Shown piece after piece: positions 41,275-60,327 of a stretch of DNA of 64,000 bases. This DNA comes from Croceitalea dokdonensis DOKDO 023 (lineage in GTDB: Bacteria > Bacteroidota > Bacteroidia > Flavobacteriales > Flavobacteriaceae), in assembly GCF_001306415.1 (NCBI RefSeq), contig NZ_LDJX01000003.1, forward strand, positions 124,001 to 188,000, read 5' to 3'. The notes below the pieces were generated by a model that saw only the letters and a list, made by a program, of their open reading frames with translations, ran no database searches and had not been told where the DNA came from. The position numbers were made by a program, and so were the translations under genes. Numbering within the stretch: position 1 is the stretch's first letter; every line of letters starts with the position of its first letter.

Positions 41275-41290
41275 AGTGAATGTTCATTCA
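41273..41290. promoter_or_regulatory. TetR operator, first copy
   Basis: TGAGTGA-ATGT-TCATTCA is 6 of 7 symmetric and begins in the last two bases of the -7 box. It matches the site at 44960-44977 in 15 of 18 bases. The TetR at 44985 probably represses here. Confidence 0.7.
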
Positions 41291-41304: not shown

Positions 41305-43245
41305 ATGAAAACAATTAATAATCCAATAATCATCCTTCTATTCCTCTTCGCTATTCATTTTCTAGCTGCGAATACTAACGAATACGTGCTCCCAAGAGAG
41401 ATAATATCTGATTCCATAATTCCTTTTTATAAAGGCCCATACAAAGTACGCGTGGAGCGCAGCCATTTTATCAAAATGCGAGATGGGGCGCGACTTTCTA
41501 CCGATTTGTATTTTCCAGTGGATTACGAAGGAAAGCTTCCAGTTATCTTGGAGCGTACCCCCTATGACAAGGCCAATAGAAGAATAGCCGACCCAGAGGC
41601 ACCTATTACCATGAATAATCAGGCTTATTATTACGCGAGTCATGGTTTTGTGTTTGCAGTACAAGATAGAAGAGGCAAGTTTGAATCTGAAGGAGATTAC
41701 ACTATTGGCTATGGAGATGTTAACGATGCATACGATACCTTAGAATGGTTCGAAAAGCAAGACTGGTTTAACGGTAATGTTGGAATGATTGGTTGTTCTA
41801 TTCCAGGGGGCAACGTAATCAAAGCTGGCATGAGCCAACATAAATCTCTAAAAGGTCTGGTACCTCAGTCAGCAGGTTTTGGGCACGGTACGGCCGGAGG
41901 CACTATGGCAAGGGGCTTTTTACGTGGAGGGGTTCAGAATATGTGGATGCCACTTTGGACTCATGGTTTTGGGTCCAAACTGTTTTATCGCCCATCAAAA
42001 CGATTAAATCGAGAAGAGTATCTCAAAGTAGCAGATAGATTTGATTTTAGACCAAACGTCAATGATTTAGTGGAATATATGGATCTTACCACCGGTGCTT
42101 TTACAAAAAAAGGCTTGGAGACCATTATGCACCTCCCGTTGGTTGAGATAGATGACCTTATGGGCTCCCCACCATCTGATTGGGACAATTTAATATCCAA
42201 ACCACCTATGGACCCCTGGTGGCTGGCCGGCGATTATCTCGAGGACGAGGATGCAGTTAGCGGAGGAGCCTTGCACGTTAACTCATGGCACGATTACAGT
42301 GTCCATGAAACTATGCTTCAATTTGAACATTTTTCGAAAAAAGGTAAAACTGAATGGGATAGAGAAAATCAATACGCAATCATTGGACCGTTGGGACATT
42401 GCAGACTTGAAAATCTCACTTCAAACACTATTAATGTTGATAGGGAATTGGGTGATGCCAGATTTGATGCCTGGGGTACGTATCTTAAATGGTGGGATTA
42501 TACCTTAAAAGGCAACAAGGATGCTTTTGAAGGGACTCCAAAAATCCAGTATTTTTTACCCGGGGCCAATGAATGGCGTTCCTCGGACGAATGGCCAATT
42601 GCCGGAACTGTTCCAACAAAACTCTACCTTTCAAGTAACGGGAGCGCCAATACCCGTCTTGGTGATGGAAGCTTAAATTGGGAAAAAGCAAAAAGTGATG
42701 AAATAGATGAATATGAATATGACCCTTCAAATCCAGTTGGAAACTTTGAAGAAGCTGTAAACCAGGGCTCATCGGATATGTCAGAATTAGAATTACGCAA
42801 AGATATACTGGTCTATTCTACATCGCCTTTAGAAGAAGATATCGAAATGACAGGAAAAATTCGAGCTAAAATTTGGGTATCTACCAATGTACCGGATACC
42901 GATTTGGCCTTAAAGTTGGTAGATGTATATCCCGATGGTCGCGCTTATGCCATAAAAGAAACGTATTTACGATTACGTTACCGAGATGGATATGATAAGA
43001 CCGTCATGATGGAACCTGGAAAAATATATCCCATTGAGCTTGGTACAATGACCAGTGCAAACCTTTTTAAGAAAGGCCACCAAATACGTATTGAAATTAC
43101 CAGTTCCAACTTCCCCACCTTCGCACGAAACTTAAATACGGGAGGTAACAATGCCACGGAAACTGAATTTCAGAAAGCTAACGTAAAAATTCTCCATGGT
43201 AAGAGACATCCATCACATATCGAATTACCGATAATTAAAAGATAA
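41305..43245 (+). CDS. CocE/NonD (S15, X-Pro dipeptidyl-peptidase-like) hydrolase, exported
   Basis: This 646-aa exported serine hydrolase has a signal peptide (to about residue 22), an alpha/beta hydrolase domain with MRDGARLSTDLYFP and GNVGMIGCSIPGGNVIKAG (nucleophile Ser in G-C-S-I-P-G), the later IGPLGHCRLE for the histidine, and a C-terminal jelly-roll domain (about 420-640). Family members cleave esters, amides and X-Pro peptides. It is first in the island cargo with its own promoter and operator. The substrate is unknown. Confidence 0.9.
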   Translation: MKTINNPIIILLFLFAIHFLAANTNEYVLPREIISDSIIPFYKGPYKVRVERSHFIKMRDGARLSTDLYFPVDYEGKLPVILERTPYDKANRRIADPEAPITMNNQAYYYASHGFVFAVQDRRGKFESEGDYTIGYGDVNDAYDTLEWFEKQDWFNGNVGMIGCSIPGGNVIKAGMSQHKSLKGLVPQSAGFGHGTAGGTMARGFLRGGVQNMWMPLWTHGFGSKLFYRPSKRLNREEYLKVADRFDFRPNVNDLVEYMDLTTGAFTKKGLETIMHLPLVEIDDLMGSPPSDWDNLISKPPMDPWWLAGDYLEDEDAVSGGALHVNSWHDYSVHETMLQFEHFSKKGKTEWDRENQYAIIGPLGHCRLENLTSNTINVDRELGDARFDAWGTYLKWWDYTLKGNKDAFEGTPKIQYFLPGANEWRSSDEWPIAGTVPTKLYLSSNGSANTRLGDGSLNWEKAKSDEIDEYEYDPSNPVGNFEEAVNQGSSDMSELELRKDILVYSTSPLEEDIEMTGKIRAKIWVSTNVPDTDLALKLVDVYPDGRAYAIKETYLRLRYRDGYDKTVMMEPGKIYPIELGTMTSANLFKKGHQIRIEITSSNFPTFARNLNTGGNNATETEFQKANVKILHGKRHPSHIELPIIKR

Positions 43246-43381
43246 AAAATTTCCCAAATGGAAAGCTGGGAATATGGATAATATGCTAACCAGAATGCTC
43301 TAATCACATAAACCAAAAATGAATATGACTAAGGTAAATGAGCATTTTTTTCATTTAAACTTTAAAAATTTAAATAGTATT

Positions 43382-44803
43382 ATGAGAATTTGGATTATCC
43401 TAATGTTAGCAATAGTAAGTCCAATTTTAAATTTTGCTCAGGCAAATCAGGAGGGGTTACAACTACATATTTCTCCCGCGGAACGCCTCTTAACGGATTC
43501 TGCCAAAGTCATCATTACAGGAGCGCCACCTGGAGCGGAGATTACACTCCTGGCAACTTTAAAGGATAACGGCGGACAGACGTGGTCATCAAGGGCTATT
43601 TATTATGCTAATCGTGATGGCTCAGTAGATTTATCAAAAGATGCTTCATTGGCCGGAACCTATCAGGGTGTGGACAACGAAGGTATTTTTTGGTCCATGC
43701 AGCCAGCAACTTTAGAAGAGCTGGGTAATATGGGTATGAGCGAACAAAATATTGACCACCCTCGTCGCATACCTGATTTTGATTCATGGAATGCTGCTTA
43801 TTCTACCTTCAAGAATGGCGTGGACATTGTGTTCAAAGCAAAAATCACAGGAGCAGTCGCTTCATCTTTTCCAAAAGTGGTGATAGGCAAACAACATATA
43901 CAGTGGGTGAAAAGAGGAGTGAAAAGGATAGAGATCAAGGAAGGTGGATTACGAGGTGTTTTGTACGAGGCTGGCGGAGAGGGTCCCCAGCCCATTGCGC
44001 TCGTGGTTACAGGTTCAGGAGGCGGAGCTTATGAAAACAAAGCTGCCGTATTGGCCTCCAATGGCATCACGGCCTTTGCTTTGGCACATTTCAATTATTC
44101 GGATAGGCCAAAAGAGTTAAAAAATATACCGTTGGAGTATTTTGAAAGTGCTTTGGATTGGTTATCCAAACGTTATGATTTGGAACGCATTGCCCTATTT
44201 GGTGACTCACGGGGTGGCGAGGGTGTCCTATTAATAGCCTCAACATTTCCCGACAAAGTTTCCGTAGTAGTGGCTGGGGTGCCTTCAAACGTGGTCTGGA
44301 GTGGCTATTATGGAGTTCCTTCGTGGACATTGGAAAATCAAGCTTTACCACATATCCCGTGGGATTTTAAATTAAGGGAAAGCGATATATCACCAAATTC
44401 CATGGAAGCGAGGGACTTATTCTTGAAAGGCATGACTTCATATGACTTCGATGACCCGCACTGGATTCCAGTCGAAAAAATTCAATCACCAATACTGCTT
44501 GTGTCTGGTGATGCAGATGCCATTTGGCCATCCAGTATAGCTTCTGAAAAAATAGTGGAGCGTCTTAAGAAAAGGAGATTCAATTTTCCGGTTGAACATC
44601 TGGAATACAAAGGTGCCGGTCATCAAGTTACATTTCCTATGTTGGTCAAAGGTAGATTGACACAGATGGAAGAAAAGAATAACATTTCATTGACCTTAGG
44701 GGGCACACCACAAGGCAACGCGAGGGCCCAAACAGATGCCTTCCAAAGAATATTGAGTTTCATCAAACATTATGCCAAAACAAATTCTTCCGTTAATGAG
44801 TGA
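43382..44803 (+). CDS. acyl-CoA thioester hydrolase/BAAT-like exported hydrolase
   Basis: This 473-aa protein has a signal peptide, a beta-rich N-terminal domain like the acyl-CoA thioesterase/bile-acid-CoA:amino acid N-acyltransferase family (LLTDSAKVIITGAPPGAEIT), and an alpha/beta hydrolase domain with ALFGDSRGGEGVLLIAS (Ser nucleophile; human BAAT has Cys here). The Asp and His lie in SGDADAIWP and GAGHQVTFP. The ATG at 43382 gives the signal peptide; an earlier ATG at 43319 would push it inward. The export signal makes a CoA substrate unlikely; an acyl ester or amide fits better. Confidence 0.85.
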   Translation: MRIWIILMLAIVSPILNFAQANQEGLQLHISPAERLLTDSAKVIITGAPPGAEITLLATLKDNGGQTWSSRAIYYANRDGSVDLSKDASLAGTYQGVDNEGIFWSMQPATLEELGNMGMSEQNIDHPRRIPDFDSWNAAYSTFKNGVDIVFKAKITGAVASSFPKVVIGKQHIQWVKRGVKRIEIKEGGLRGVLYEAGGEGPQPIALVVTGSGGGAYENKAAVLASNGITAFALAHFNYSDRPKELKNIPLEYFESALDWLSKRYDLERIALFGDSRGGEGVLLIASTFPDKVSVVVAGVPSNVVWSGYYGVPSWTLENQALPHIPWDFKLRESDISPNSMEARDLFLKGMTSYDFDDPHWIPVEKIQSPILLVSGDADAIWPSSIASEKIVERLKKRRFNFPVEHLEYKGAGHQVTFPMLVKGRLTQMEEKNNISLTLGGTPQGNARAQTDAFQRILSFIKHYAKTNSSVNE

Positions 44804-44930
44804 TAATTCATTTGAAATATCGTCAATATTGATTACGATAACTCCTTTATAAATGACGGATATACAGAATAGGGAGTTCAAGTTGAAAATTGGCAGAACA
44901 TATTGTAGATAGATGAATTTCTGATAAAAA

Positions 44931-44961
44931 TTTTGATATCCCAACATTTTTTTTATTTTTG
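44931..44961 (+). promoter_or_regulatory. promoter of the TetR gene
   Basis: TTTTG (44931-44935), 18 bases, TATTTTTG (44954-44961); the same layout as at 41244-41274. Confidence 0.75.
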
Positions 44962-44977
44962 AATGAATAGTCATTCA
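44960..44977. promoter_or_regulatory. TetR operator, second copy (autoregulatory)
   Basis: TGAATGA-ATAG-TCATTCA is a perfect 7-4-7 palindrome overlapping the -7 box by two bases and ending 7 bases before the ATG of the TetR gene. Confidence 0.8.
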
Positions 44978-44984
44978 ATAAAAG

Positions 44985-45572
44985 ATGCCAAGAACACTTG
45001 AACAGAATAAAAAAATTAAAGAAGCCTCCAAAAAGCGCATTATGGAAGCTGCTTTAAAAGTCTTTGGGGAATATGGTTTTGATGGCGCCTCCGTAAGTCA
45101 AATAGCTAGAGAGGCAGGTATAAGTACCGGTTTAATGTACAACTATTTTGCGAGTAAGGATGATTTGGTCTTGACTATCGTGGATGACTTTTTAGAACAT
45201 CATTTTGGCGAATGGGGAAAGAAAATTTCCGATGCTCAAACACCTTATGACAAACTGGTTGTAGCTGTTGACCGATACGTCATACCGCTACAGGAAGATG
45301 TAAACAAATGGCGATTGATTAGGGAGTTGTCAGTGAGAAAGGAATTCAAGGATGAGTTTTGGAATATTGTCTCTCCTATCAGAAATGTTTACGCAAAACA
45401 ATTGGAAAGTCTCTATCTGCAATTAGGAGAAGACCCAGTTAAAGGATTCTGGGGCCTCCAGACTTTCCTCGAAGGAGTCGCGAGTTGTTATTGTAGCTAC
45501 GGAGAAAAATATCCAATTCAGCAAATAAGAAATCAATACTTAAAGGGATATAGACAAAAGCTTTACGAGTGA
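44985..45572 (+). CDS. TetR/AcrR family regulator of the island cargo
   Basis: This 195-aa repressor has an N-terminal HTH (about residues 15-60; RIMEAALKVFGEYGFDGASV, IAREAGISTGLMYNYFASKDDL) and a helical ligand domain of no named type. The ATG at 44985 follows its own palindromic operator. The same site lies before the CocE-type gene at 41305. So it probably controls itself, the hydrolases and perhaps the TonB receptor gene downstream. The inducer is probably the cluster's substrate. Confidence 0.92.
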   Translation: MPRTLEQNKKIKEASKKRIMEAALKVFGEYGFDGASVSQIAREAGISTGLMYNYFASKDDLVLTIVDDFLEHHFGEWGKKISDAQTPYDKLVVAVDRYVIPLQEDVNKWRLIRELSVRKEFKDEFWNIVSPIRNVYAKQLESLYLQLGEDPVKGFWGLQTFLEGVASCYCSYGEKYPIQQIRNQYLKGYRQKLYE

Positions 45573-45662
45573 TAATGGAAAGGGGGTTCAATGTTCCACC
45601 ATCCAAACCCCCAATACCTTGTATCAATTACTAACGTGAATTACTAACTAATACTTTTTAAA

Positions 45663-48158
45663 ATGACCACAAAAATGGAAAAATTTACAGAGAAAACGAA
45701 ATCGTGTGTATTTCAGGTTCGAAAAAAGGCAAGTTTTCTACTGAGTGCTTTACTGCTAATCTTCTTTAATTTGGCTTATGGAAATAAAAGCCCTTTGCCA
45801 GCACAACAGCAGGTAACGATTTCTGGAAAAATAAGTGATTCCAATACTGGGGAGCCATTGGCAGGAGCCAATGTAGTTTTGATGGGCGGTACACAAGGTA
45901 CTACGGCAGATTTTGATGGTAATTATAGTTTCACCATTACTTCGCAAGATGATGCTGTTCAGTTAGAGGCCAGTTATATCGGGTATGCTACTAAGGTGAC
46001 CTCGGTAAATATAACCGGAGCCTCGGTTACCGTAAACTTTTCATTGAACCAATCGGCTCAAGCGCTCGGAGCCGTAGTGGTTACCGCAAACAAACGTGGT
46101 GAACGTCTACAAGATGTTCCCAGTTCAGTTCAAGCCCTTACCAGCGAGACTGTTGAACAAATTGGAATACGCGATATCAACGAAGTATTGGCCTTTGTGC
46201 CGGGGGCTTCTGAAGACCTATCGTTTGGAGCCGGTCTAAGACAGTACCAGTTGAGGGGTATTCCCCAAGGTCCTGGCGACCCTACCATAGGGTATTACGT
46301 AGATGACATCCCTTTTAATTTTTTTGGTTTTCGCTGGGCACCTTTAGGTAGAACCTTTGACGTGAGTCGCGTAGAAGTGCTGAGGGGCCCCCAAAGTACC
46401 TTGTACGGTGCGGGAGCAATGGGTGGTGTTATAAAGTTTGTGACTAATAAACCCAATTTGTATGAATTCGGCGGAAAAGCGGTTGCTGGTTTGACCACTT
46501 TGGCGGATGGGGATTCAGGTTATTATACTGATTTGGCATTGAACGTACCTATTATTAAAGAAAAATTAGCAATTCGACTTACCGGAAGTTTAGAGCAAAT
46601 TGGAGGTTACGCAGATAACAATCCAGAATTATTGCAAGAAGACTTTGCAAAGAATATAAATGAGGCAGATATATCGCAGTTCAGGGCTCAATTGCTATAC
46701 CAGCCCACAGAGAACTTCCAGATAAGAGCATCTTATTATAGGAACGAGAATGAACAGGATGGTGGTACGTTTCTGTCTGAGCTTGACCCCGAAATTTTAT
46801 TGGGTTCAAAAAATGACATAGCCAGAGCAAATTGGGAAGTTTTCTCAGGTACCTTACAATATGATTTTAGTTTCGCTACCCTTACTTCGACATTTAGCTC
46901 AATAAATGTGGAATCAACAGTTTCTACAAGTCTGTTTTTAGGTGATGTATTCGGCACGGGAGAACCTCTGGGTTTGTTGACCTCATTTAGTGACAACAAT
47001 GTTAAAGGCTTCAATCATGAGACTAGAATAACTTCAAGGGGGGATGGTCCTTTTAAATGGCTTGGTGGCTTCTATTTTGTAGAATCGGATGCTACATTCG
47101 ATTCCTTTATTGTTCCCGAACTAGCGTTCTTCCCTCCCTCAGAGTCCCTTTCACAATCCGTATCACCCTCATTTTTTGGAGAGGTTTCCTATGGATTTTT
47201 GGATAATAAATTGGTTGCGCTTGCGGGCTTGAGAACCTTTAGAGATCGTCGAACTTTTACCGAAGACTTTATCTCATTTACTGCCGATGGTGCTGTGCCA
47301 GTAACGGACCAGCAGCAAAACACCTTTACTAGTATCAATCCACGATTAAACCTTTCTTATCAACCTAATGAAAACACCAATTTCTATATTAATGCCGCCA
47401 AAGGATTTAGAGGCGGACAATTCAACAGCAATGCCGTTGTTGCGGAACATACTGCTTTTGGCTTACCGGCATCCAACCTTATAGAATCCGATGAGATTTG
47501 GAGTTATGAAGTTGGTTCTAAACTATCATTGGCAGAAAATCAAGTTTCGGTTGAGCTTGCAGCCTATAGACAGAATTGGAGTAATGCCATTCTTCAATTT
47601 GCCGTGGTATCTTTTGCCGACTATAATGTAGGAGACGTATTGGGGCAAGGTATCGATTTAGGAGTGGCCTATGCCCCTGCGAACACCCCATGGACCTTTA
47701 CCGCAACTGCAAACTTGAACAGTACTGAATTTGATGATATCCGCCCGGAACTTTTGGAAAGCATAGAGGTTCCTTCTGGTGTGGCGGATCCTCCAACTAT
47801 TGAAGTGCAGCCATTGGGCTTCCAAAATGGTGATGCCTATCCCTTTGTTCCAAACTTCACCTTCGCTGCCAGTATCAATTACAACAAGACGTTTGGAACC
47901 AAAGGATGGGGTACCAACAATACTGTCTCCTTCTCACATAGAGGCGAACAGCCTGGTAATGGGGATATTGTATCCGACCCTTTGTCTTTGATGCGTTTAC
48001 GTCTAGGGGTGACCAAAGATAATTTTGCTATAACCTTATTCGGAAACAATCTGTTCAATGATAGGGATTCTAATTATGCACAACGCACACCTGCATTAAC
48101 CGCCTTTACACCTACGCTACCAAGACAACTTGGTTTAGAGGTAAGTGTCGGATTTTAA
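45663..48158 (+). CDS. TonB-dependent outer membrane receptor (island)
   Basis: This 831-aa receptor has a long signal segment (to about residue 42), a carboxypeptidase-regulatory-like domain (about 50-130; SGKISDSNTGEPLAGANVVL), a plug (about 140-260; RGERLQDVPSSVQALTSE, VEVLRGPQSTLYGAGAMGG) and a 22-strand barrel with a C-terminal Phe (LGLEVSVGF). The plug style is that of siderophore and small-substrate receptors rather than of SusC, and no SusD follows. It lies between the TetR gene and an amidohydrolase. It probably imports the compound handled by the cluster. Confidence 0.9.
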   Translation: MTTKMEKFTEKTKSCVFQVRKKASFLLSALLLIFFNLAYGNKSPLPAQQQVTISGKISDSNTGEPLAGANVVLMGGTQGTTADFDGNYSFTITSQDDAVQLEASYIGYATKVTSVNITGASVTVNFSLNQSAQALGAVVVTANKRGERLQDVPSSVQALTSETVEQIGIRDINEVLAFVPGASEDLSFGAGLRQYQLRGIPQGPGDPTIGYYVDDIPFNFFGFRWAPLGRTFDVSRVEVLRGPQSTLYGAGAMGGVIKFVTNKPNLYEFGGKAVAGLTTLADGDSGYYTDLALNVPIIKEKLAIRLTGSLEQIGGYADNNPELLQEDFAKNINEADISQFRAQLLYQPTENFQIRASYYRNENEQDGGTFLSELDPEILLGSKNDIARANWEVFSGTLQYDFSFATLTSTFSSINVESTVSTSLFLGDVFGTGEPLGLLTSFSDNNVKGFNHETRITSRGDGPFKWLGGFYFVESDATFDSFIVPELAFFPPSESLSQSVSPSFFGEVSYGFLDNKLVALAGLRTFRDRRTFTEDFISFTADGAVPVTDQQQNTFTSINPRLNLSYQPNENTNFYINAAKGFRGGQFNSNAVVAEHTAFGLPASNLIESDEIWSYEVGSKLSLAENQVSVELAAYRQNWSNAILQFAVVSFADYNVGDVLGQGIDLGVAYAPANTPWTFTATANLNSTEFDDIRPELLESIEVPSGVADPPTIEVQPLGFQNGDAYPFVPNFTFAASINYNKTFGTKGWGTNNTVSFSHRGEQPGNGDIVSDPLSLMRLRLGVTKDNFAITLFGNNLFNDRDSNYAQRTPALTAFTPTLPRQLGLEVSVGF

Positions 48159-48175
48159 TCTTAAAAGCTACCCAA

Positions 48176-49651
48176 ATGACAAAAATTAGAAAAAGTGTAC
48201 TCGGAATAATTCTGATAGTACTTCTATGGAGCTGTCAATCTGAAAAAACCAAGCAAATTGAGGCCGATTGGCTTATCGCCAATATTACCGTAATAGATGT
48301 GGAAACTGGTGATGAATTACCAAATTCCTATGTCGCGATTATCGGGGATAGTATTTCTGCGGTGCTTGATGAGCAGGTTACAATACAGGATACCACCAAG
48401 GTAATAGATGGTACCGGAAAATATCTTATACCCAGTTTTTGGGACATGCATGCCCATGTAAGTTTTAACCACAAGTATCAGCAAGGTCTGTTGGTCGCCA
48501 ATGGAGTTGCAGGCGTTAGAGAAATGTGGGGCAAAATGGATATCATAGACTCGATTAGGCAAGAAACCAAAAAAGGTAACATGATTGCCCCGGAGATCTA
48601 CACGTCTTCGGCAATAATTGGGGGAGACCCCCCCTACTGGCCAGGTTCCGACATTGTAGGAAACGCAGAACAAGCAAAATCAGTGCTTCAAAACCAAGCT
48701 AATGAGGGTGTTGATTTCTTTAAAATATATAGTCTGCTCAACAAAGATGCTTATATGGCTATTGCCGAAGAGAGTAAGCGTTTGGGAATACCTTTCGCGG
48801 GACACGTACCTGAATCGGTTTCGCTCTTCCAAGCCATAGATGCGGGACAAGCAACCACCGAACACTTGATGCGATTTATTCCTTCTTGCTCCACCGCTGA
48901 GGAGGAATTTTATGGAACCGCTGGCCTGTCCAGCTTTGTAGCTGAAAAGATTGAGCGTTCTTTGGAGACATTTAGCCAAGAAAAGTATGATAGCCTAGTT
49001 CAAAAATTAGCCAAAAGTGACACATGGCTAGTTCCTACCATGGTAACGAAAAGGGGTATCGCCATGGCTACTGATACAATTTTGCTTAGCGTTGATCCAG
49101 AAATAAATCCTCTAATCAAATTTATGCCTGCCCATTCCGTAGCGGTATGGAAAATGATGCCACAATTTGCCGAAATGAAATTTGGTGATGGTTTTTTTGA
49201 AGCCAATAGGAAAAGATATGAAAAGGAAATGAGCCTACTTGGTGATATGCAAGATAAGGGCGTCAAGTTTTTGGTCGGTACCGATTACGCCAATCCACAT
49301 TGCTATCCTGGTTTTTCAATGCATACAGAGATGCAGCTCTTGGTCGAAGGAGGCTTTAGCCCTTTCGAGGCATTACAGGCAGCCACTTATAATCCCGCCC
49401 TCTTTTTCAAAAAAACAAATGAAATGGGTACGGTCGCAGATGGAAAAGTTGCCAATTTAATTTTGCTCAATGGAAATCCGCGTGAAGATATTGGCAATAC
49501 CGAAACAATAGAGGCTGTTTTTCTTCGTGGCGTTTACATGGACAGGAATCGTTTGGACGGACTAATTGAAGAATCAAGGGCCTTAGCTGAAAAGGAAATC
49601 AATGAAGTGGAGTTACCAGGAGGGATGCCTATTCACATGCACATGCACTAA
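48176..49651 (+). CDS. amidohydrolase lipoprotein (island)
   Basis: This 491-aa enzyme is exported as a lipoprotein (LLWSC, Cys20). Its metal site is like that of the chromosomal amidohydrolase at 23300: FWDMHAHVSF (H-x-H), FAGHVPESV, TTEHLMRF, and VGTDYANPH for the catalytic Asp. A C-terminal tail is rich in Met and His (GGMPIHMHMH), which may bind metal. The family cleaves amides, lactams and X-Pro-type bonds. It follows the TonB receptor by 17 bases. Confidence 0.88.
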   Translation: MTKIRKSVLGIILIVLLWSCQSEKTKQIEADWLIANITVIDVETGDELPNSYVAIIGDSISAVLDEQVTIQDTTKVIDGTGKYLIPSFWDMHAHVSFNHKYQQGLLVANGVAGVREMWGKMDIIDSIRQETKKGNMIAPEIYTSSAIIGGDPPYWPGSDIVGNAEQAKSVLQNQANEGVDFFKIYSLLNKDAYMAIAEESKRLGIPFAGHVPESVSLFQAIDAGQATTEHLMRFIPSCSTAEEEFYGTAGLSSFVAEKIERSLETFSQEKYDSLVQKLAKSDTWLVPTMVTKRGIAMATDTILLSVDPEINPLIKFMPAHSVAVWKMMPQFAEMKFGDGFFEANRKRYEKEMSLLGDMQDKGVKFLVGTDYANPHCYPGFSMHTEMQLLVEGGFSPFEALQAATYNPALFFKKTNEMGTVADGKVANLILLNGNPREDIGNTETIEAVFLRGVYMDRNRLDGLIEESRALAEKEINEVELPGGMPIHMHMH

Positions 49652-49790
49652 TTTTCGTTGGAAATAACAATAAGTTAAGGATATGGTATTAATGCGTTTT
49701 ACGCGGCTTATTTGATATTGAAAAAACAAGTTTAAGATATTTCGATGAACTCTTATACCTCTATATCCGCCAGTACCTAAAAATGTTTAA

Positions 49791-51173: not shown

Positions 51174-51355
51174 ATAAAAAGTACGGCTTGGCCACGTTGA
51201 GGGTTTGGGGGTTAATTTTAAACTTCATGATGAATTTCTTGACCTTGTTTGGAGCTGCTAATTATTTGCGCGGTGATACGGATGCAACGGTTATGATCGT
51301 GGGGATTATCGGGACCATAATTTGTATAACGGTTCTTTCCAAACCCCAAAATTAA
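51164..51355 (+). CDS. small two-helix membrane protein
   Basis: This 63-aa protein has two hydrophobic segments (about residues 11-32 and 42-58). Its start overlaps the Nramp-like gene by 10 bases, which suggests a subunit or stabiliser of that transporter. No family is known to me. Confidence 0.7.
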   Translation: MDLDKKYGLATLRVWGLILNFMMNFLTLFGAANYLRGDTDATVMIVGIIGTIICITVLSKPQN

Positions 51356-51365
51356 AAATGAATAC

Positions 51366-51782
51366 ATGGATTTAAAGAAATTATTGCAGAGCTCTCCCTT
51401 TCATCGCTTACTCGGATTGAAATGGATTTCCTCAAATATGAACGAGGTCGTATTAGGTGTCGATTACAAGAAAGAATTGGATGGTAGCGACGAAGGAGTG
51501 AACATACACGGAGGGGTTATAGCCTCCCTTATTGACGTATCGGCTTGCTTTGCCATGATGAATGCAATTGGTGGTGATGCTCCAAACATGAACTTGGAGG
51601 TACATTATACCCTAATGGCGGCCTCGGGAGATTCTTTGAAAGCCACGGCCAAGACACTTAAAGTAGGACGAACAATCGGAATCGCTGATGTCATAGTGAC
51701 AAATCAAGATGGAAAGCTGATTGCCGTTGGACGTTCCACACTAGCAAACGCAGCACCATCTCGGGATAAATTAACGAAATAG
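51366..51782 (+). CDS. hotdog-fold acyl-CoA thioesterase (PaaI type)
   Basis: This 138-aa cytosolic enzyme has the hotdog core: NIHGGVIASLIDVSACFAMMN (the H-G-G-x4-D pattern), then LEVHYTLMAASGDSLKATAK and GRTIGIADVIVTNQDGKLIAVG. It hydrolyses acyl- or aryl-CoA thioesters. The acyl-CoA ligase two genes on would make its substrate. It is 10 bases from the small membrane protein. Confidence 0.9.
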   Translation: MDLKKLLQSSPFHRLLGLKWISSNMNEVVLGVDYKKELDGSDEGVNIHGGVIASLIDVSACFAMMNAIGGDAPNMNLEVHYTLMAASGDSLKATAKTLKVGRTIGIADVIVTNQDGKLIAVGRSTLANAAPSRDKLTK

Positions 51783-51809
51783 AAATACTAACCTTTAACA
51801 AAAAACATA

Positions 51810-52817
51810 ATGAAAGCGATAGTACTGCACCAACACGGCGGCGTCGAAGAATTCAAATTTCAAGAGGTTCCAACACCAGAATTGGGCCCTAAGGATGTAA
51901 AGGTAGCCATTAAAGCGGTGAGCCTTAACTTCCTTGATATTCTCGTCCGAAGGGGTAGTCCCGGACTCCATGTAGAATTCCCGCACATTGGAGGTGGCGA
52001 CATGGCTGGAGAAATAGTTGCCACAGGGAATGGAGTTTCTGAATTCTACGTGGGTCAACGAATTTTGGTTCAAGCCATATATACCCAAGAAAATGGGAGG
52101 CCCGCACTTATGGGCGAACAGGGCAACGGAGGACTATGTGAATACATGGTGTTGCCCAAAGAACACATCATACCCATAGCCGATAGCTTAAGCTATGAAG
52201 ATGCAGCCTGTTTGCCCGTGGCTTATGGAACAGCATGGCGCATGTTGATGACCCGCGGTAAGCTGACCAAAGAAGATAGCATATTTATTTTGGGTGCAGC
52301 GGGTGGCGTAGGTACCGGATGCCTCCAAATCGCAAAAATGGTGGGATGCAAGAAGATTTTTGTTGCGGCAGGATCTCAGGAAAAATTGGAATTACTTAAA
52401 GAGCTAGGAGCGCATGAATTAATAAATTATAAAGAGGAACCTGAATTTCACAAAGCAATAAGGTCTAGAAATGATGGAAAACCTGTTGATGTAGTTGTAA
52501 ATTATGTAGGAGGCGAAAGCTGGGCCACAAGTTTAAAATGCCTTAAAAATGACGGTCGTTTGTTAACCTGTGGTGGTGCCGCGGGATATTGGCCCAAAAC
52601 AGATCTCAGATATATTTTCGGTAAGGAATTGAATATAATCGGTTCCGATGGATGGACCATGCAAGACCTAAAAGATTTGATTAAGGCTACGGAAGAGGGG
52701 CGTATCAAACCCGTTATAGATAGTGTGATGCCCTTCTCCAAAATTGCAGAGGCCCACCAGCGGATTGAAAATCGAGAAGTCATTGGAAAAATTGTGCTCA
52801 CACCTGATTTTGATTGA
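51810..52817 (+). CDS. zinc-free quinone oxidoreductase-like (MDR superfamily)
   Basis: This 335-aa NADPH-dependent reductase has a GroES-like N-terminus (HQHGGVEEFKFQEVP, VKVAIKAVSLNFLDILVRRG) and a Rossmann domain with IFILGAAGGVGTGCLQIAKM (about residues 155-174). The zinc ligands of alcohol dehydrogenases are absent. It would reduce a quinone, enone or enoyl-CoA. Its stop overlaps the start region of the acyl-CoA ligase gene. Confidence 0.9.
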   Translation: MKAIVLHQHGGVEEFKFQEVPTPELGPKDVKVAIKAVSLNFLDILVRRGSPGLHVEFPHIGGGDMAGEIVATGNGVSEFYVGQRILVQAIYTQENGRPALMGEQGNGGLCEYMVLPKEHIIPIADSLSYEDAACLPVAYGTAWRMLMTRGKLTKEDSIFILGAAGGVGTGCLQIAKMVGCKKIFVAAGSQEKLELLKELGAHELINYKEEPEFHKAIRSRNDGKPVDVVVNYVGGESWATSLKCLKNDGRLLTCGGAAGYWPKTDLRYIFGKELNIIGSDGWTMQDLKDLIKATEEGRIKPVIDSVMPFSKIAEAHQRIENREVIGKIVLTPDFD

Positions 52818-52822
52818 ATAAC

Positions 52823-54367
52823 ATGGATGCGATTCAGTCAAATAATTTAGGCACACTTTTTTATGGAGCAGTCCTACTCTATCCTAATAAGGTCGCCATT
52901 GTCCAAGATGAACGCTCAATCACATATAGCGAACTTCAACATCGGACGTTAAGACTAAAATCATATTTGACCGAGCTCGGCATAAGGAAAGGAGATAAGG
53001 TTGCTATCTTGGCCGAAAATGATTTTCGTTTCGCTGAATGTCTTTTTGGTATTATGCAGGTGGGAGCAATCGCCGTGCCAATCAACATAAAGATGGGTGA
53101 AGAAATTCTGGACTATATTCTCGAGAATTCAGAAACCAAGTATTTAATATGTACCAAAACCTTTGAGGATTATGCGAAACACGCAACATCAAATAAATTA
53201 GATTTAATAGGCTATTTGATTCTTGATAATCAGGAACTGTATGAGCAAAAAATATATCAAAAAGCACAACTGGATATAGTTGTAAGGGTTGAACCCGAAG
53301 ATACTGCATTGATTATGTATACCTCGGGATCCACGGGTAAACCAAAAGGTTGTCAACTAACCCATGGTGGAACCCTTTGGATGATAAAAACAACAGTACA
53401 CAGTTATTTCGTGGACAACACGGATAGTTCTTTGATTACAGGTCCATTATACCATGCCAATGCGCTTTGGTGTACATTTTATCCCATGATATTTTGTGGT
53501 GGAACGGTTTACGTTCGTTCTGGTTTTGAAGCGATGGACGCGCTAAAATCCATTGCCAAGTTCAAACCAACCTATATCGCTGGGACACCAGCTATGTTCG
53601 CTTTGTTGTTGCGAAAAATTGCTGAGAAGGAAATCCCAAGTTCGTCAATGGCCTGTTTACGTTTTCTGGTCTTTGGGTCAGCTCCTGTTTCACAAAAATT
53701 ATTGAATGACATCCAAGCTCAATGGGATTGCGATATATTGGAAGGTTACGGTTCCACCGAGGCAGGTATCGTCAGCTGTTTGCCGCGATGGGGAATGAAA
53801 AAAATTGGAAGTATAGGCATTCCTTTTAAGGATGTGGAAGTTAAAATCATTGATACCTCTACAGGGGGAGAATGCAAAGTTGGGGAGGTGGGTGAATTGT
53901 ATATCAAGTCCCCAGCTCTGTTGTCTTGCTATTACAAAAATCCAACGGCTTTCGCAAAAAAGATGAAATCAGGTTGGTTTACATCGAACGATTTGGTCGT
54001 GATGGATAGCGATGGCTATCTCTATTTTAAGGGCCGAACCGATGATATGATCAATTGTGGAGGAGAAAATATTTTCCCAAAAGAAGTTGAACAACTGCTG
54101 TTGAAACATCCCATGGTAGCGGATGTCGCTGTTCTTCCGGTTAAACACCCACTGAAAGGTAGTGCCCCAGTAGCATGGGTGGTATATAAAGATAGTGAAG
54201 AACCATCCGAAAAAGGCATAAAAGATTATGCCCTTGAAAATGGACCGGCGTACGCACATCCTCGACGTGTGTTTTTTATAGATGAACTACCGCTCAATGG
54301 AACAAAAAAGGTGAACTACAAAGAGTTGGAAACACTTACCAAAGAAGAATTGCCACATGGACTTTAG
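52823..54367 (+). CDS. AMP-binding acyl-CoA ligase
   Basis: This 514-aa enzyme activates a carboxylic acid as acyl-AMP and then acyl-CoA. P-loop: ALIMYTSGSTGKPKGCQLTH (about 165-184); EGYGSTEAGI; GWFTSNDLVVMDSDGYLYFKGRTDDMI; GGENIFPKEVEQ; final catalytic Lys near NGTKKVNYKEL. The ATG at 52823 comes 5 bases after the oxidoreductase stop. Which acid it takes cannot be read. Confidence 0.93.
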   Translation: MDAIQSNNLGTLFYGAVLLYPNKVAIVQDERSITYSELQHRTLRLKSYLTELGIRKGDKVAILAENDFRFAECLFGIMQVGAIAVPINIKMGEEILDYILENSETKYLICTKTFEDYAKHATSNKLDLIGYLILDNQELYEQKIYQKAQLDIVVRVEPEDTALIMYTSGSTGKPKGCQLTHGGTLWMIKTTVHSYFVDNTDSSLITGPLYHANALWCTFYPMIFCGGTVYVRSGFEAMDALKSIAKFKPTYIAGTPAMFALLLRKIAEKEIPSSSMACLRFLVFGSAPVSQKLLNDIQAQWDCDILEGYGSTEAGIVSCLPRWGMKKIGSIGIPFKDVEVKIIDTSTGGECKVGEVGELYIKSPALLSCYYKNPTAFAKKMKSGWFTSNDLVVMDSDGYLYFKGRTDDMINCGGENIFPKEVEQLLLKHPMVADVAVLPVKHPLKGSAPVAWVVYKDSEEPSEKGIKDYALENGPAYAHPRRVFFIDELPLNGTKKVNYKELETLTKEELPHGL

Positions 54368-54520
54368 CACAAATATTTCAATGGGATTTTTTTATGGGAT
54401 TTTTGTTATTCCAATAATGATTCAGAAAATCTGTGAGCTTCCAGATAAGCTTCATATTCACATCACAGGATTATTTATTGACAAAACCCAGGTTGGGTAC
54501 CAATCTAAATATAAAATAAG

Positions 54521-55366
54521 ATGATAAAATCCTTAGACCATTTTGTGCATTTAGTGCTCAACTTGGATAAAGCAAGAGAACACTATATAAAATTAGGATT
54601 CAATGTTAGACCAGCATCACAACATTTAGAACTGGGCTCTTCAAACTGCGTGATTCAATTTCCGAAAACCTATTATGAGCTGGTCGACCTTTCTGAGGGT
54701 GAAAAATGGTTGAGCGATCCATATCTGAATCGATTTAAGTTAGGTGAAGGCTTGGCACATGTTTCCCTCGATAGTGAGAACCTCGTTTCGGATAGGGCTC
54801 GATTAATTGAATTAGGTTATGAGCCCGAGCCAATTGTAAGTGCTAGGAGAAAGATTACCATGCCAGATGGCGCTGTTGATGAAACCGATAGCGACTGTTT
54901 TTATGTATGGAGAAAAGACAACCCTTATTTGTCCCTTTTTACCAGTATTCACAATAAACCCGAGACAATATTCATTCCCGAATTCCGTCAACACCCAAAT
55001 AAAGCCATTGCCTTAAAGGAATTGGTCTTTATTACAACAAGGCTAGAGGAGGATATTGTTTATTTCACGGACCAATATGGCAAATCTCCAGATGAGATTA
55101 GTAATGAGGGTTTTAGCTTGGTTGGTAGACGTGGCGATGTTGCTAAAGTGATGACCCCAAGTGTTTTTGCAAAAGAGTATGGTGACATCGCGCATTCAGA
55201 ATTGGGTCCGTTATCTGGCATTCCCAAAGTAGTTGTATTCAAAAGCCATGATTTATCAAAAACCCAACAGTATTTTGAAAATAGTGGAATTCCGTTTAAA
55301 AAGCTGGCAAGCAGTATTGCGGTGCATGAAGATAATGGGATGGGAGCAGCAATGATTTTTACATAA
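54521..55366 (+). CDS. VOC (glyoxalase-like) family protein
   Basis: This 281-aa protein has two vicinal-oxygen-chelate halves: LDHFVHLVLNLDKAREHYIK (the glyoxalase-like start) and ALKELVFITTRLEEDIVYFT in the second half. Members include dioxygenases, lyases and isomerases; the metal ligand set (His8 or His11, His in GLAHVSLD, Glu in the second half) cannot be fixed. It follows a 153-base gap, so a second promoter may drive the last four genes. Confidence 0.82.
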   Translation: MIKSLDHFVHLVLNLDKAREHYIKLGFNVRPASQHLELGSSNCVIQFPKTYYELVDLSEGEKWLSDPYLNRFKLGEGLAHVSLDSENLVSDRARLIELGYEPEPIVSARRKITMPDGAVDETDSDCFYVWRKDNPYLSLFTSIHNKPETIFIPEFRQHPNKAIALKELVFITTRLEEDIVYFTDQYGKSPDEISNEGFSLVGRRGDVAKVMTPSVFAKEYGDIAHSELGPLSGIPKVVVFKSHDLSKTQQYFENSGIPFKKLASSIAVHEDNGMGAAMIFT

Positions 55367-55370
55367 TGGT

Positions 55371-56492
55371 ATGAAGCAAATATTAGACCCATATGAAATT
55401 ACAGGAGGTGGTACGGCCTATGTCTACTTGGATGGTAAACCTTTTTTGAATTTTGGCGGAAATAATTATCTGGCCCTGAATTCAAGAAAGGAACTTAAGC
55501 AGGCAGCTTTAAGGGAACTTGAAAAAACCAACGGCTATTCCATGCACTTACCCGATGCCTACGGTGCCAAAGAAGAAGCTTTTATGTCAGTTGAGGAAAA
55601 AGCGGCCCTCTTTTTTGACACCGAAGCAGCTGTCTATTTACCTTCGGGGTATTTCATTGCACACGCTGCGATGTCGGGTCTAGAGGGCCTATATGATGCC
55701 ATTGTCATTGATGAATTGGCCCATTGGTGTACACAGGATGCTGCAAATTTATCGGGCCATCCCGTTCTCTATTTCAAGCATAACGACCTCAAAGACCTGG
55801 AAAAGGTATTAACAGATTTACCAGCTAGTTATAGGCCTCTGATTGCAACGGATGGATGTTTTGCTACAACGGGAGAGATTCCACCAATCAATGTTTATGA
55901 AAAACTGGCCAAAGAAAAAATGGGTGTCGTATATGTCGACGAATCACATTCCATTGGCGTAGTGGGGGAAAATGGTCGTGGTGCAAAGGAGTTCTGCAGG
56001 GCTGGTGATAGTGTTCATGTTGGTGCTACGTTGAGTAAAGGGATTTGCGGCCAAGGTGCGGTATTCATCGGCACTCATGAAATGGTCAAAAAAGCAAAAA
56101 CTTCTACGGTTTTAAGGGGTTCTTCAAAAGGGTCTCCCATCTCTGCCGCGGTATCCGCAACGGCCTTGGAAATTGTTAGGAAAAATCCGAAACTGGTAAA
56201 AAGTCTTTACGACAAGACCAAATATTTAAAAAGTAAGTTAAGTGTTGAGTTAGTCAGTGAAAACTCCCCAGCACCAATAGTTTCCTTTTCGCTGGGGAGT
56301 TTCAAAAAAAACCGTGCACTTCAAGAATTCTTATTCAAGAGAAACATTTACGTATTACATTCTAACTATATCGCTTCAGGACCGTCAGGTATAATCAGAC
56401 TTTCCATTTTTGCCGATCATCAAACTAAAGACCTAAATATTTTTATTGAAGCCTTAAACGATTTTTTGAACAAAGATTCTTTTACGAAATGA
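55371..56492 (+). CDS. alpha-oxoamine synthase-like PLP enzyme (AONS/KBL/SPT family)
   Basis: This 373-aa PLP enzyme would condense an acyl-CoA with an amino acid. The core is plain: VYLPSGYFIAHAAMSG, VIDELAHWC, VDESHSIGVVGENGRG (Asp and His of the PLP site), and GATLSKGICGQGAVF (PLP Lys). At 373 aa it is slightly short; AONS has about 385. It might make an alpha-amino ketone from the CoA ester formed by the neighbour ligase. It starts 4 bases after the VOC stop and overlaps the next gene by 4. Confidence 0.88.
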   Translation: MKQILDPYEITGGGTAYVYLDGKPFLNFGGNNYLALNSRKELKQAALRELEKTNGYSMHLPDAYGAKEEAFMSVEEKAALFFDTEAAVYLPSGYFIAHAAMSGLEGLYDAIVIDELAHWCTQDAANLSGHPVLYFKHNDLKDLEKVLTDLPASYRPLIATDGCFATTGEIPPINVYEKLAKEKMGVVYVDESHSIGVVGENGRGAKEFCRAGDSVHVGATLSKGICGQGAVFIGTHEMVKKAKTSTVLRGSSKGSPISAAVSATALEIVRKNPKLVKSLYDKTKYLKSKLSVELVSENSPAPIVSFSLGSFKKNRALQEFLFKRNIYVLHSNYIASGPSGIIRLSIFADHQTKDLNIFIEALNDFLNKDSFTK

Positions 56493-57652
56493 CGAAAGCC
56501 AAAACACTTTATTTCGATAATGCGGCAACTACGATGATGCGGCCTAAAGTACTATCCTTAATAGCTTATGTAATGAGGGAAAACTATGGAAATCCGTCCT
56601 CCGCACATTCTGAAGGTCAAAAGTCAAGGAATATCATTGAGAAGGCAAGAAAAGCCATTGCCAGGGAACTAAGAGCAAAACCTAAAGAAATTATCTTCAC
56701 ATCAGGTGGTACCGAGGCTGACAACATGATTCTTTATACCGCAGTAAAGGACCTCGGCGTTGAAACCTTGATAACAAGCAAGATTGAGCACCATGCGGTT
56801 CTAAATACCTGTGAAATGCTGGGGAAGAACTTTGGGGTATCAGTTGAATATGTTGATTTGAATTCCTTTGGAAATATCGACTACAATCATTTGGAACGAC
56901 TGCTAAAAGCGGATAAGTCGATTAAAATGGTAAGCTTGATGCATGTGAACAACGAAATCGGAAATATTACGGACATTCATGCTGTAGGTGATTTATGTTC
57001 AAAACACGGTGCTTATTTTCATTCTGATACGGTACAGTCCATCGGGCATTACAAATTCGATCTGGAAAATACCCCTATTGACTTCTTGACCGCTTCGGCA
57101 CATAAATTCCATGGTCCAAAGGGAGTTGGTTTTGCATACGTCAGGACGGGTATTCCCATTTCGGGAATGATATTTGGTGGATCACAAGAATCTGATCTTA
57201 GGGCCGGTACGGAATCCTTACATAACATAGCTGGCATGCATTGTGCTTTTGACATTGCTTATAAAAATCTTTCCATTGAAAGAGCTCATGTGCAAGGTTT
57301 GAAAGAATATTTCATTGAAGGATTGATAACCAACATTCCGGAGATTTCTTTTAATGGCCTTTCTTCTGATATCACAAGAAGTACCTACACCTTGTTAAAC
57401 GTAAGCCTGCCGTTAGAACATTCAAGAGCGGCCATGGTAATGTTCCAATTGGACATGAAAGGAATTATCTGTTCAAAGGGTAGCGCATGTTCAAGTGGTA
57501 GTTCAAAAAGTTCCCATGTCTTAGAGCAAATTTTACCTGAAGGTGAATTAAGCAAGCCATCCTTACGCTTTTCATTGTCATATCAAAATACCAAAGAAGA
57601 AATCGATTTCCTTATAAAGGAACTCTCAGAAATTTTAAAATCCATAGCATGA
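56489..57652 (+). CDS. cysteine desulfurase/NifS-like aminotransferase class V
   Basis: This 387-aa PLP enzyme has FDNAATTMMRP, NPSSAHSEGQKSR, FTSGGTEADNM, IEHHAVLNTCE, HVNNEIGN, SAHKFHGPKGVGFAYV (PLP Lys) and a catalytic-Cys loop CSKGSACSSGSSKSSHVLEQ. All active residues of the NifS/IscS group are there. No IscU-like scaffold gene is near, so it may supply sulfur to a special product or act as a lyase. It overlaps both neighbours by 4 bases. Confidence 0.9.
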   Translation: MTKAKTLYFDNAATTMMRPKVLSLIAYVMRENYGNPSSAHSEGQKSRNIIEKARKAIARELRAKPKEIIFTSGGTEADNMILYTAVKDLGVETLITSKIEHHAVLNTCEMLGKNFGVSVEYVDLNSFGNIDYNHLERLLKADKSIKMVSLMHVNNEIGNITDIHAVGDLCSKHGAYFHSDTVQSIGHYKFDLENTPIDFLTASAHKFHGPKGVGFAYVRTGIPISGMIFGGSQESDLRAGTESLHNIAGMHCAFDIAYKNLSIERAHVQGLKEYFIEGLITNIPEISFNGLSSDITRSTYTLLNVSLPLEHSRAAMVMFQLDMKGIICSKGSACSSGSSKSSHVLEQILPEGELSKPSLRFSLSYQNTKEEIDFLIKELSEILKSIA

Positions 57653-58893
57653 TGAAAAAATTAATCGCAGTGTTGATTCTAGGTTATTTGTCCATAAGTG
57701 TACGTGGTCAAGACTCCTTAAACTTGAAGATAGCCGAACAGGTTGAAGTAATTGAACACCTTGTTAGGGAGCCCATGTTTGTTGAACATCCTTCCGGGAG
57801 TTTATTTGTTAGTGGTTATAGCAATAAGACAGCCACTCCCCACTTGTGGCGCAGTGATGATAAGGGTAAAACATGGAATATATTGGATGTTGGTACCCAA
57901 TCAGAAGGTGCCGATGGAAATTCGGATGTTGATCTTGCTGTAGATAGCCAAGGTACTCTGTATTTTATCACAATGCGTTACACGACTTTTCCAGAGAACA
58001 TGGATGATTTTGATTTCATGAAAGCTAAAGGAAAACATATAGCCGTTGGTGTTAGTAAAGATGAAGGCAGTTCTTGGAAATGGAAATATATTTCTAAAGA
58101 GGATTATGATGACCGGCCATGGATAGTTGTGGATTCGGACCATGGAGCACATATCATCTGGAACAATAATAAAGGAGTACATTATGTCAAGAGCAAGGAT
58201 CAGGGAGAAACCTGGTCGGAAAAAATGACCATTTCCCCCAAAGGTGGTTCTAGTCATTTTGCAGCAGGCGAAAATGGTCTTCTTGCTGTACGTGTTTCAG
58301 CCTTATCAGCTTCAGCTACAATTTATAGTTCAGGCACTGATTTTGTCAGTATAAGTAAGGACAATGGCGACACATGGAATTCGGTAAAATTACCCGGCAA
58401 ACGTTCTTGGAAAGGAGAAAGGTCAAATGGGGTGGATCGATGGGTCGATCCATTAGCTTGGGATGATAATGACATACTATATCATATGTGGTCAGAAAAT
58501 CAAACCCTTTACCTTGGTGTGTCTGAGGACTACGGGCAAAACTGGAATATTATTGAAGTCCTAAAAAATGAAGACCAATTGTATTTCCCCTTTTTAAGCA
58601 TTAAGAACGGTACTTTGGCTTTCTCATGTCTTTCTGGATATGATAACGATATACGTCATCATGCCGGGGTGATAAATCTCGTTGGAAACGAATACAATGT
58701 AAGTGCAATTGAGCCATTAAAATTAGAGAATCTTAAGGGAAGGTTTGGTTCGGATACGCTGTCCCACGGTGGTGAATACTTTCCAATTCAAGTTTTGAAG
58801 GATGGTGACCTTGGAATGGTAACTACAATCCAGGACTATGGTAAAAATCAACTTGGGTTCACTTGGTGGAGATTGAAAATAGAATTGGATTGA
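57649..58893 (+). CDS. exported Asp-box (BNR) beta-propeller protein, sialidase-like
   Basis: This 414-aa protein has a signal peptide (to about residue 20) and five Asp-boxes with the S-x-D-x-G-x-x-W pattern: WRSDDKGKTW, VSKDEGSSW, VKSKDQGETW, ISKDNGDTW, VSEDYGQNW. This gives a six-blade propeller. No full set of sialidase arginines is plain, so it may be a lyase, another hydrolase or a binding protein. It overlaps the NifS-like gene by 4 bases, so it is in the operon. Confidence 0.85.
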   Translation: MMKKLIAVLILGYLSISVRGQDSLNLKIAEQVEVIEHLVREPMFVEHPSGSLFVSGYSNKTATPHLWRSDDKGKTWNILDVGTQSEGADGNSDVDLAVDSQGTLYFITMRYTTFPENMDDFDFMKAKGKHIAVGVSKDEGSSWKWKYISKEDYDDRPWIVVDSDHGAHIIWNNNKGVHYVKSKDQGETWSEKMTISPKGGSSHFAAGENGLLAVRVSALSASATIYSSGTDFVSISKDNGDTWNSVKLPGKRSWKGERSNGVDRWVDPLAWDDNDILYHMWSENQTLYLGVSEDYGQNWNIIEVLKNEDQLYFPFLSIKNGTLAFSCLSGYDNDIRHHAGVINLVGNEYNVSAIEPLKLENLKGRFGSDTLSHGGEYFPIQVLKDGDLGMVTTIQDYGKNQLGFTWWRLKIELD

Positions 58894-60313: not shown

Positions 60314-60327
60314 AAGTTATAAAAAAA

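What the first reader, a model, noticed from the sequence alone, without database searches (positions are those of the whole stretch)
41305..58893. Unnamed uptake-and-conversion cluster: hydrolases, TonB receptor, Nramp-like transporter, acyl-CoA and PLP enzymes
The genes span the whole path: exported hydrolases, outer-membrane receptor, periplasmic amidohydrolase, inner-membrane transporter, then ligase, thioesterase, reductase, VOC enzyme, two PLP enzymes and an exported propeller. I know no described pathway with this set. Options: breakdown of an acyl-amide or peptide-like compound, or making of an acyl-amino ketone.
Basis: inference. Interest (0 to 1): 0.72.

Follow-up and report, generated by a model that had tools for sequence, protein, structure and literature searches.

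The report
Mobile acyl-peptide uptake and breakdown cluster
A 17.6-kilobase set of thirteen genes, carried on a mobile genetic island in a Bacteroidota bacterium and mirrored in unrelated Proteobacteria, probably imports and breaks down an unidentified acylated amino acid or small peptide, using an unusual enzyme of a vitamin-B6-dependent family whose reaction is unknown.

Summary
The gene set is real. Thirteen same-strand genes fill 41305-58893, and residues checked by motif in seven of the enzymes are present. It is not a chance neighbourhood. A proteobacterial genome (G1260, locus L070) carries nine of the families within 12 kb, eight in one unbroken run: S15 hydrolase (45% identity), Nramp-fold transporter (56%), AOS-like PLP enzyme (48%), two amidohydrolases, ligase, thioesterase, reductase and VOC. 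Sphingosinicella microcystinivorans and a Steroidobacteraceae MAG carry further variants with the BAAT-like hydrolase and TonB receptor. In the window's own lineage it is foreign: 7 congeners and the other sampled family genomes lack the PLP enzyme, and the cluster lies on a tRNA-Asn integrative element with its own integrase.

Best reading: inducible uptake and catabolism of an acylated amino acid or small peptide-like compound. The AOS-like enzyme is a separate clade that kept its PLP and amino-acid residues but lost the acyl-CoA-linked signatures of KBL/SPT/BioF, and its homologues sit beside peptidases, epimerases and racemases. An 'acyl-amino ketone' synthesis is therefore less likely. 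The TetR gene has a perfect FadR-type operator before it, with a second copy before the first gene. Substrate, reaction order and the roles of VOC, NifS-like and propeller proteins remain unknown.

The parts
41305..43245 (+). Exported S15/CocE-family serine hydrolase (ester/amide)
   Evidence: Peptidase_S15 and PepX_C; CocE_NonD 342 bits; cocaine esterase E 1e-85; GCSIPGG, WHDY and GPLGH present; 45% identity to G1260 homologue
43319..44803 (+). Exported BAAT/acyl-CoA-thioesterase-like alpha/beta hydrolase; probable start about 43382
   Evidence: BAAT_C and Bile_Hydr_Trans; GDSRGGE nucleophile; 52% identity to Steroidobacteraceae homologue
41273..41290 (.). Candidate TetR operator upstream of first gene
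   Evidence: 2 mismatches to TGAATGANTANTCATTCA, about 15 bp before the CocE start
44960..44977 (.). Candidate TetR operator upstream of the regulator
   Evidence: perfect match to TGAATGANTANTCATTCA, about 8 bp before the TetR start
44985..45572 (+). TetR-family regulator, FadR-like DNA-binding domain
   Evidence: TetR_N; best NCBIfam match Bacillus FadR, 60 bits, below its 200 cut-off
45663..48158 (+). TonB-dependent outer-membrane receptor with N-terminal CarboxypepD-like domain
   Evidence: LYGAGAMGG-type motif shared with receptors of Variovorax and Duganella loci
48176..49651 (+). Exported lipoprotein amidohydrolase (M38 prolidase/aminoacylase-like)
   Evidence: Amidohydro_1; similarity to Xaa-Pro dipeptidases/carboxypeptidases; HxH, K, H, H, D metal ligands
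49791..51173 (+). Nramp-fold inner-membrane transporter without metal motifs
   Evidence: Nramp; neither DPGN nor MPH; 56% identity to G1260 homologue
51366..51782 (+). 4HBT (hotdog) acyl-CoA thioesterase
   Evidence: HGG motif
51810..52817 (+). MDR reductase of quinone/enoyl type, no catalytic-zinc cysteine
   Evidence: PIG3/QOR family 207 bits; NFLD in place of the zinc-ligand motif
52814..54367 (+). AMP-dependent acyl-CoA ligase
   Evidence: AMP-binding 291 bits; TSGSTGKPKG, YGSTE and catalytic Lys region
54521..55366 (+). Two-module VOC protein (Glyoxalase_3)
   Evidence: homologues next to or near AOS in L070, L024, L026, L028
55371..56492 (+). AOS-fold PLP enzyme of a divergent clade
   Evidence: tree; lost KBL/SPT motifs
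56489..57652 (+). NifS-like PLP enzyme (probable cysteine desulfurase/lyase)
   Evidence: Aminotran_5, NifS 367 bits below cut-off 531; PLP Lys and active Cys loop SACSSGS
57649..58893 (+). Exported BNR-type beta-propeller
   Evidence: BNR_2
59087..60313 (-). Tyrosine integrase of the carrying element
   Evidence: 59000-60461 is 99.7% identical to a second copy 16 kb on in the same genome
36940..37014 (+). tRNA-Asn, integration site
   Evidence: att remnant of the tRNA at extended own-genome position 76544-76611, beyond the window
37333..37810 (+). Left-end repeat of the element
   Evidence: 85% identical to 60452-60929
60452..60929 (+). Left-end repeat of the next element

Best explanation
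The cluster is an island-borne, inducible uptake and catabolic system for an acylated amino acid or small peptide-like compound. Inferred steps: the TonB receptor imports the compound. The exported S15/CocE and BAAT-like hydrolases and the lipoprotein M38 amidohydrolase cut ester and amide bonds in the periplasm. The Nramp-fold carrier moves an organic product into the cytoplasm. The ligase makes its CoA thioester, the MDR reductase and VOC protein modify it, and the thioesterase salvages CoA. The AOS-fold enzyme acts on the released, probably non-standard, amino acid, by a reaction that need not use acyl-CoA. The NifS-like enzyme handles a sulfur-bearing amino acid. The TetR protein represses two promoters and is released by a pathway intermediate, plausibly an acyl-CoA. 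Shown: gene content, linkage, cross-phylum conservation, mobility, intact catalytic residues where checked, and the operator sites. Inferred: substrate class, order of steps, and regulation.
For: The same families are linked in G1260 (S15, AOS, two amidohydrolases, Nramp, ligase, 4HBT, reductase, VOC), in two S. microcystinivorans loci and in two Steroidobacteraceae loci. A POT/PTR2 peptide-type transporter lies in L029 and an MFS transporter in L012. M38 relatives hydrolyse Xaa-Pro dipeptides and N-acyl amino acids (PMC11511702). Nramp-family PxpT is required for growth on 5-oxoproline (PMC13274462). AOS-clade neighbours elsewhere are dipeptide epimerase, beta-lactamase-family hydrolase, M81 and M55 peptidases, RidA and alanine racemase. 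Perfect and 2-mismatch FadR-type operators lie at the two promoters; 0.6 matches are expected by chance at up to 3 mismatches, and 4 were found. Similar sites lie by the TonB-receptor and TetR genes of L011 and L014.
Against: No substrate, transcript or phenotype data. The NifS-like gene and propeller had no homologue in the related loci examined, and BAAT is absent from L070, so part of the cluster could be unrelated cargo. Several family scores fall below curated equivalog cut-offs. The Nramp relative YcsG was also reported to import manganese (PMC10448178). In L070 the nearest receptor is about 7 kb beyond the run.
Confidence: 0.6

Rival explanations
1. The system protects the cell by destroying a peptide-like or beta-lactam-like antibiotic or a pollutant, rather than feeding on it; the cytoplasmic enzymes finish detoxification.
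For: S15/CocE relatives include alpha-amino acid ester hydrolases and cocaine esterase; amidohydrolase relatives include molinate and phenylurea hydrolases; mobile element and patchy distribution.
Against: A TonB receptor and inner-membrane importer bring the compound in. A CoA ligase, thioesterase and reductase suggest carbon use. No efflux pump or modified-target gene lies in the cluster.
Confidence: 0.18
2. The cluster makes and recycles an acyl-amino ketone or similar product: the ligase makes acyl-CoA, the AOS enzyme condenses it with an amino acid, and the hydrolases and receptor recover the product.
For: Ligase and AOS-family enzyme in one run; core AOS catalytic residues kept; true oxoamine synthases make aminoketones (established knowledge of the family).
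Against: The AOS clade lost the GSR..G..H and RPxLFS signatures and the N-terminal arm and separates from KBL/SPT with 100/100 support. No exporter in the cluster. Homologues sit with peptidases and racemases.
Confidence: 0.12
3. It is a metal or siderophore acquisition locus: receptor plus Nramp metal transporter, hydrolases to release the metal, NifS to build iron-sulfur clusters.
For: Receptor has siderophore-type profile similarity; Nramp name; YcsG reported as a manganese importer.
Against: Nramp DPGN and MPH metal motifs absent in both homologues; operator type is FadR-like, not Fur/MntR-like; no siderophore synthesis genes.
Confidence: 0.05
4. Two or more unrelated modules were placed side by side by the integrative element.
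For: Gaps of 139-192 bp split the run; NifS-like gene and propeller are not in related loci.
Against: L070 joins both halves (S15, amidohydrolase and Nramp with ligase, thioesterase, reductase, VOC and AOS) in another phylum.
Confidence: 0.05

Closest known systems
mlr microcystin-degradation clusters (MlrA-D) and mlr-like relatives
   Same: Uptake plus stepwise peptide hydrolysis of a natural product; the AOS clade sits beside M81 (MlrC family) and beta-lactamase-family genes in Variovorax; one relative is Sphingosinicella microcystinivorans
   Different: No M81, MlrA-type protease or beta-lactamase-family protein in the window cluster; whether the S. microcystinivorans loci relate to microcystin use was not tested
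5-oxoproline utilisation operon pxpTABC
   Same: Nramp-family carrier required for use of an amino-acid-like compound, next to its catabolic enzymes (PMC13274462)
   Different: No PxpABC oxoprolinase; different hydrolases and regulator
Threonine Tdh-Kbl pathway
   Same: MDR dehydrogenase plus AOS-family enzyme; a KBL-like gene lies in one related locus (L028)
   Different: The MDR protein lacks the zinc site, and the AOS enzyme is outside the KBL clade with KBL motifs lost
Fumonisin (fum) catabolic cluster
   Same: Catabolic cluster of a sphingomonad that opens a bioactive acylated amine with an esterase (general knowledge; the FumD and FumI enzymes appear in PMC9025740)
   Different: FumD-type carboxylesterase and FumI class III aminotransferase families not found in the window cluster

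Membership tests
alpha-oxoamine synthase (KBL/BioF/SPT/ALAS) | PLP lysine, stacking His, D-x-x-H, carboxylate-binding Arg | tested here: met
alpha-oxoamine synthase (KBL/BioF/SPT/ALAS) | GSR..G..H and RPxLFS signatures and N-terminal arm of acyl-CoA-using members | tested here: not met
   replaced in the whole clade
alpha-oxoamine synthase (KBL/BioF/SPT/ALAS) | Falls inside a characterised clade or above a curated cut-off | tested here: not met
   separate at 100/100; bioF 177 of 426 bits, KBL-type scores below cut-off
alpha-oxoamine synthase (KBL/BioF/SPT/ALAS) | Acyl-CoA-dependent activity | not testable with these tools
   needs enzyme assay
Nramp divalent metal transporter | DPGN (TM1) and MPH (TM6) metal motifs | tested here: not met
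Nramp divalent metal transporter | Nramp fold/family | tested here: met
   PF01566 112 bits
NifS/IscS cysteine desulfurase | PLP Lys and active-site Cys loop | tested here: met
NifS/IscS cysteine desulfurase | Score above a curated equivalog cut-off | tested here: not met
   367 of 531 bits
FadR-type TetR regulator | TGAATGANTANTCATTCA operator at own gene and target | tested here: met
   0 and 2 mismatches; the consensus itself is from memory
FadR-type TetR regulator | Score above FadR cut-off | tested here: not met
   60 of 200 bits
FadR-type TetR regulator | Acyl-CoA as ligand | not testable with these tools
   needs binding assay
mlr cluster | MlrA, MlrB, MlrC, MlrD homologues | tested here: not met
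   no such families among the 13 genes
tRNA-targeted integrative element | Tyrosine integrase, tRNA site, repeats and att remnant | tested here: met
tRNA-targeted integrative element | Excision or circular form | not testable with these tools
   needs PCR or reads

The most novel reading that the evidence does not exclude
The AOS-fold enzyme heads a new functional clade that performs a reaction other than acyl-CoA condensation (for example racemisation or C-C cleavage of non-standard amino acids). With VOC, MDR reductase, ligase and thioesterase it forms the core of an undescribed catabolic pathway for a class of acyl-peptide natural products, spread between phyla on mobile elements.
Probability: 0.35. 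Interest if true: 0.68.

Novelty: new variant of a known kind. Interest (0 to 1): 0.52.

Why it matters
A recurrent, cross-phylum gene set with a receptor, three kinds of exported hydrolase and a full CoA branch probably acts on something common enough in nature to be worth transferring. Finding the substrate would place a whole uptake-to-CoA route and give a function to an uncharacterised PLP-enzyme clade, to a non-metal Nramp-type carrier and to a VOC family. The operator sites and a named minimal gene set make this directly testable.

Tried and rejected
A single-sequence scan of genome contigs with the PLP enzyme found nothing; an alignment query solved this. Phylum-wide hits in one Bacteroidota family (f83) have an unrelated neighbourhood (decarboxylase and large proteins) and were set aside. 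VOC homologues on Roseobacter-group plasmids and BAAT homologues on other plasmids lack the set. Models of the VOC and PLP enzyme were poor (pLDDT 58); the VOC fold search only confirmed a two-module VOC fold. Promoter and terminator scans were near chance level. Paper searches for the gene set returned nothing. The threonine Tdh-Kbl reading was dropped because the MDR protein has no zinc site and the PLP enzyme is not a KBL. Reading the reductase and ligase as obligate partners of the AOS-like gene was tempered: the betaproteobacterial loci lack them.

Full report
Observation. Thirteen genes on one strand occupy 41305-58893 exactly as stated. Motif checks found the expected residues in seven enzymes: S15 serine hydrolase, BAAT-like hydrolase, M38 metal ligands, ligase, thioesterase HGG, the NifS-like lysine and cysteine, and the AOS-like core. 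The last three genes overlap by 4 bp and the VOC gene ends 4 bp before the AOS-like gene, so the 3' part looks translationally coupled. Larger gaps (139-192 bp) lie before the Nramp, thioesterase, VOC and TetR genes.

Is it more than chance? In the window's own group it is rare. The AOS-like gene was absent at E<=1e-60 from every other sampled family genome (249 searched including its own), and the 7 other congeners carry at most distant paralogues. The VOC was absent at E<=1e-20 from all others of 395 class genomes, and the Nramp-like gene at E<=1e-60 from all others of 247 phylum genomes. A scan of public genome contigs with an alignment of the AOS-like enzyme found five loci, four of them at 35-37% identity, in Duganella, Sphingosinicella microcystinivorans, a Steroidobacteraceae MAG and Variovorax. 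A search of the MAG's order then found G1260. Its locus L070 has an S15 hydrolase (45% identity), then in one unbroken run AOS-like (48%), amidohydrolase, amidohydrolase, Nramp-like (56%), ligase (33%), 4HBT (32%), reductase (43%) and VOC (37%). Two S. microcystinivorans loci and two Steroidobacteraceae loci carry overlapping subsets with BAAT-like hydrolases (up to 52%) and TonB receptors. The set is therefore a recurrent unit with variable accessories.

Mobility. A tRNA-Asn lies at 36940-37014 and a tyrosine integrase at 59087-60313. Left-end repeats at 37333 and 60452 are 85% identical. The integrase region 59000-60461 is 99.7% identical to a second copy at position 75089-76550 of the extended own-genome sequence, where a tRNA remnant closes the array (76544-76611). 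In congeners the same tRNA carries related integrases with other cargo. The cluster is thus cargo of one element in a tandem array at a tRNA-Asn hot spot. This explains its absence from relatives and its nearest AOS relative in Proteobacteria.

Regulation. A perfect FadR-type palindrome, TGAATGAATAGTCATTCA, lies about 8 bp before the TetR gene, and a 2-mismatch copy lies about 15 bp before the first gene. At up to 3 mismatches the window has 4 matches, all at or near these two promoters (one overlaps the end of the BAAT-like gene), against 0.6 expected, and none of 100 shuffles reached 4. Similar sites lie by the receptor and TetR genes of the Duganella and Variovorax E3 loci. The consensus is recalled from work on Bacillus subtilis FadR and was not found in a paper here. 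The TetR protein is only distantly FadR-like, so an acyl-CoA inducer is an inference.

The PLP enzyme. In the tree, the window enzyme pairs with G1260 (100/99), and 18 homologues separate from KBL/SPT-like proteins at 100/100. Aligned with KBL-like proteins, the clade keeps the PLP lysine, stacking histidine, DE-S-H and carboxylate arginine, but lacks the GSR..G..H segment, the RPxLFS segment and about 20 N-terminal residues. The link of these segments to acyl-CoA use is general knowledge of the family. Neighbours of the wider clade are dipeptide epimerase, beta-lactamase-family hydrolase, M81 and M55 peptidases, RidA, an FAD oxidoreductase and alanine racemase. This points to handling of amino acids released from peptides, perhaps D- or modified ones, rather than to synthesis of aminoketones. 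It is inference from context and motif loss, not a demonstrated activity.

The transporter. The Nramp-like protein lacks DPGN and MPH, as does its G1260 homologue. Nramp-family PxpT is required for growth on 5-oxoproline (PMC13274462), while its homologue YcsG has been reported to import manganese (PMC10448178). In related loci a POT-family or MFS carrier is found instead, which favours an organic, peptide-like cargo.

Model and rivals. The receptor, exported hydrolases and carrier feed a CoA branch (ligase, reductase, VOC, thioesterase) and an amino-acid branch (AOS-like, NifS-like). Antibiotic or pollutant detoxification is the nearest rival and chemically compatible. Synthesis of an aminoketone, a metal-uptake locus and unrelated side-by-side modules are less likely, for the reasons in the rivals list. 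Substrate and reaction order are not shown.

Novelty. No paper with the gene set was found. Each family is known and catabolic clusters with TonB receptors are a known kind, so I file this as a new variant of a known kind. The undefined reaction of the AOS-like clade is the part most likely to be new.

Noticed in passing
38285-40965: Degraded remnant of an ilv operon: ilvB reads to a premature stop after 478 codons with a further in-frame stop after it, then runs into an ilvA lacking its N-terminus; ilvN and ilvC are missing. It lies inside the same integrative element.
   Followed up: partly
59000-60461: Integrase region 99.7% identical over 1462 bp to a second copy about 16 kb away in the same genome (beyond the window), i.e. 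two tandem elements with recently shared ends.
   Followed up: yes
60461-64000: The next element in the array carries a glutamate-symporter-like membrane protein (61085-62443) and the start of a gene with a Rieske-like then glutamate-synthase-like region (about 62690 onward, read by eye).
   Followed up: no
L028 8698-9981: A KBL-like (glycine C-acetyltransferase-like) gene lies in the same run as the divergent AOS-like gene in S. microcystinivorans.
   Followed up: partly
L054-L061: In a distant Bacteroidota family (f83) the AOS-like clade sits in a conserved gene set with a PLP decarboxylase (Orn/DAP type), a ~975 aa and a ~487 aa protein of unknown function.
   Followed up: no
L062 4648-11879: A Bacteroidota genome has the AOS-like gene with a dipeptide-epimerase-like enolase, DUF819 membrane protein, beta-lactamase-family protein and a large TonB-type receptor, parallel to the betaproteobacterial loci.
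   Followed up: partly
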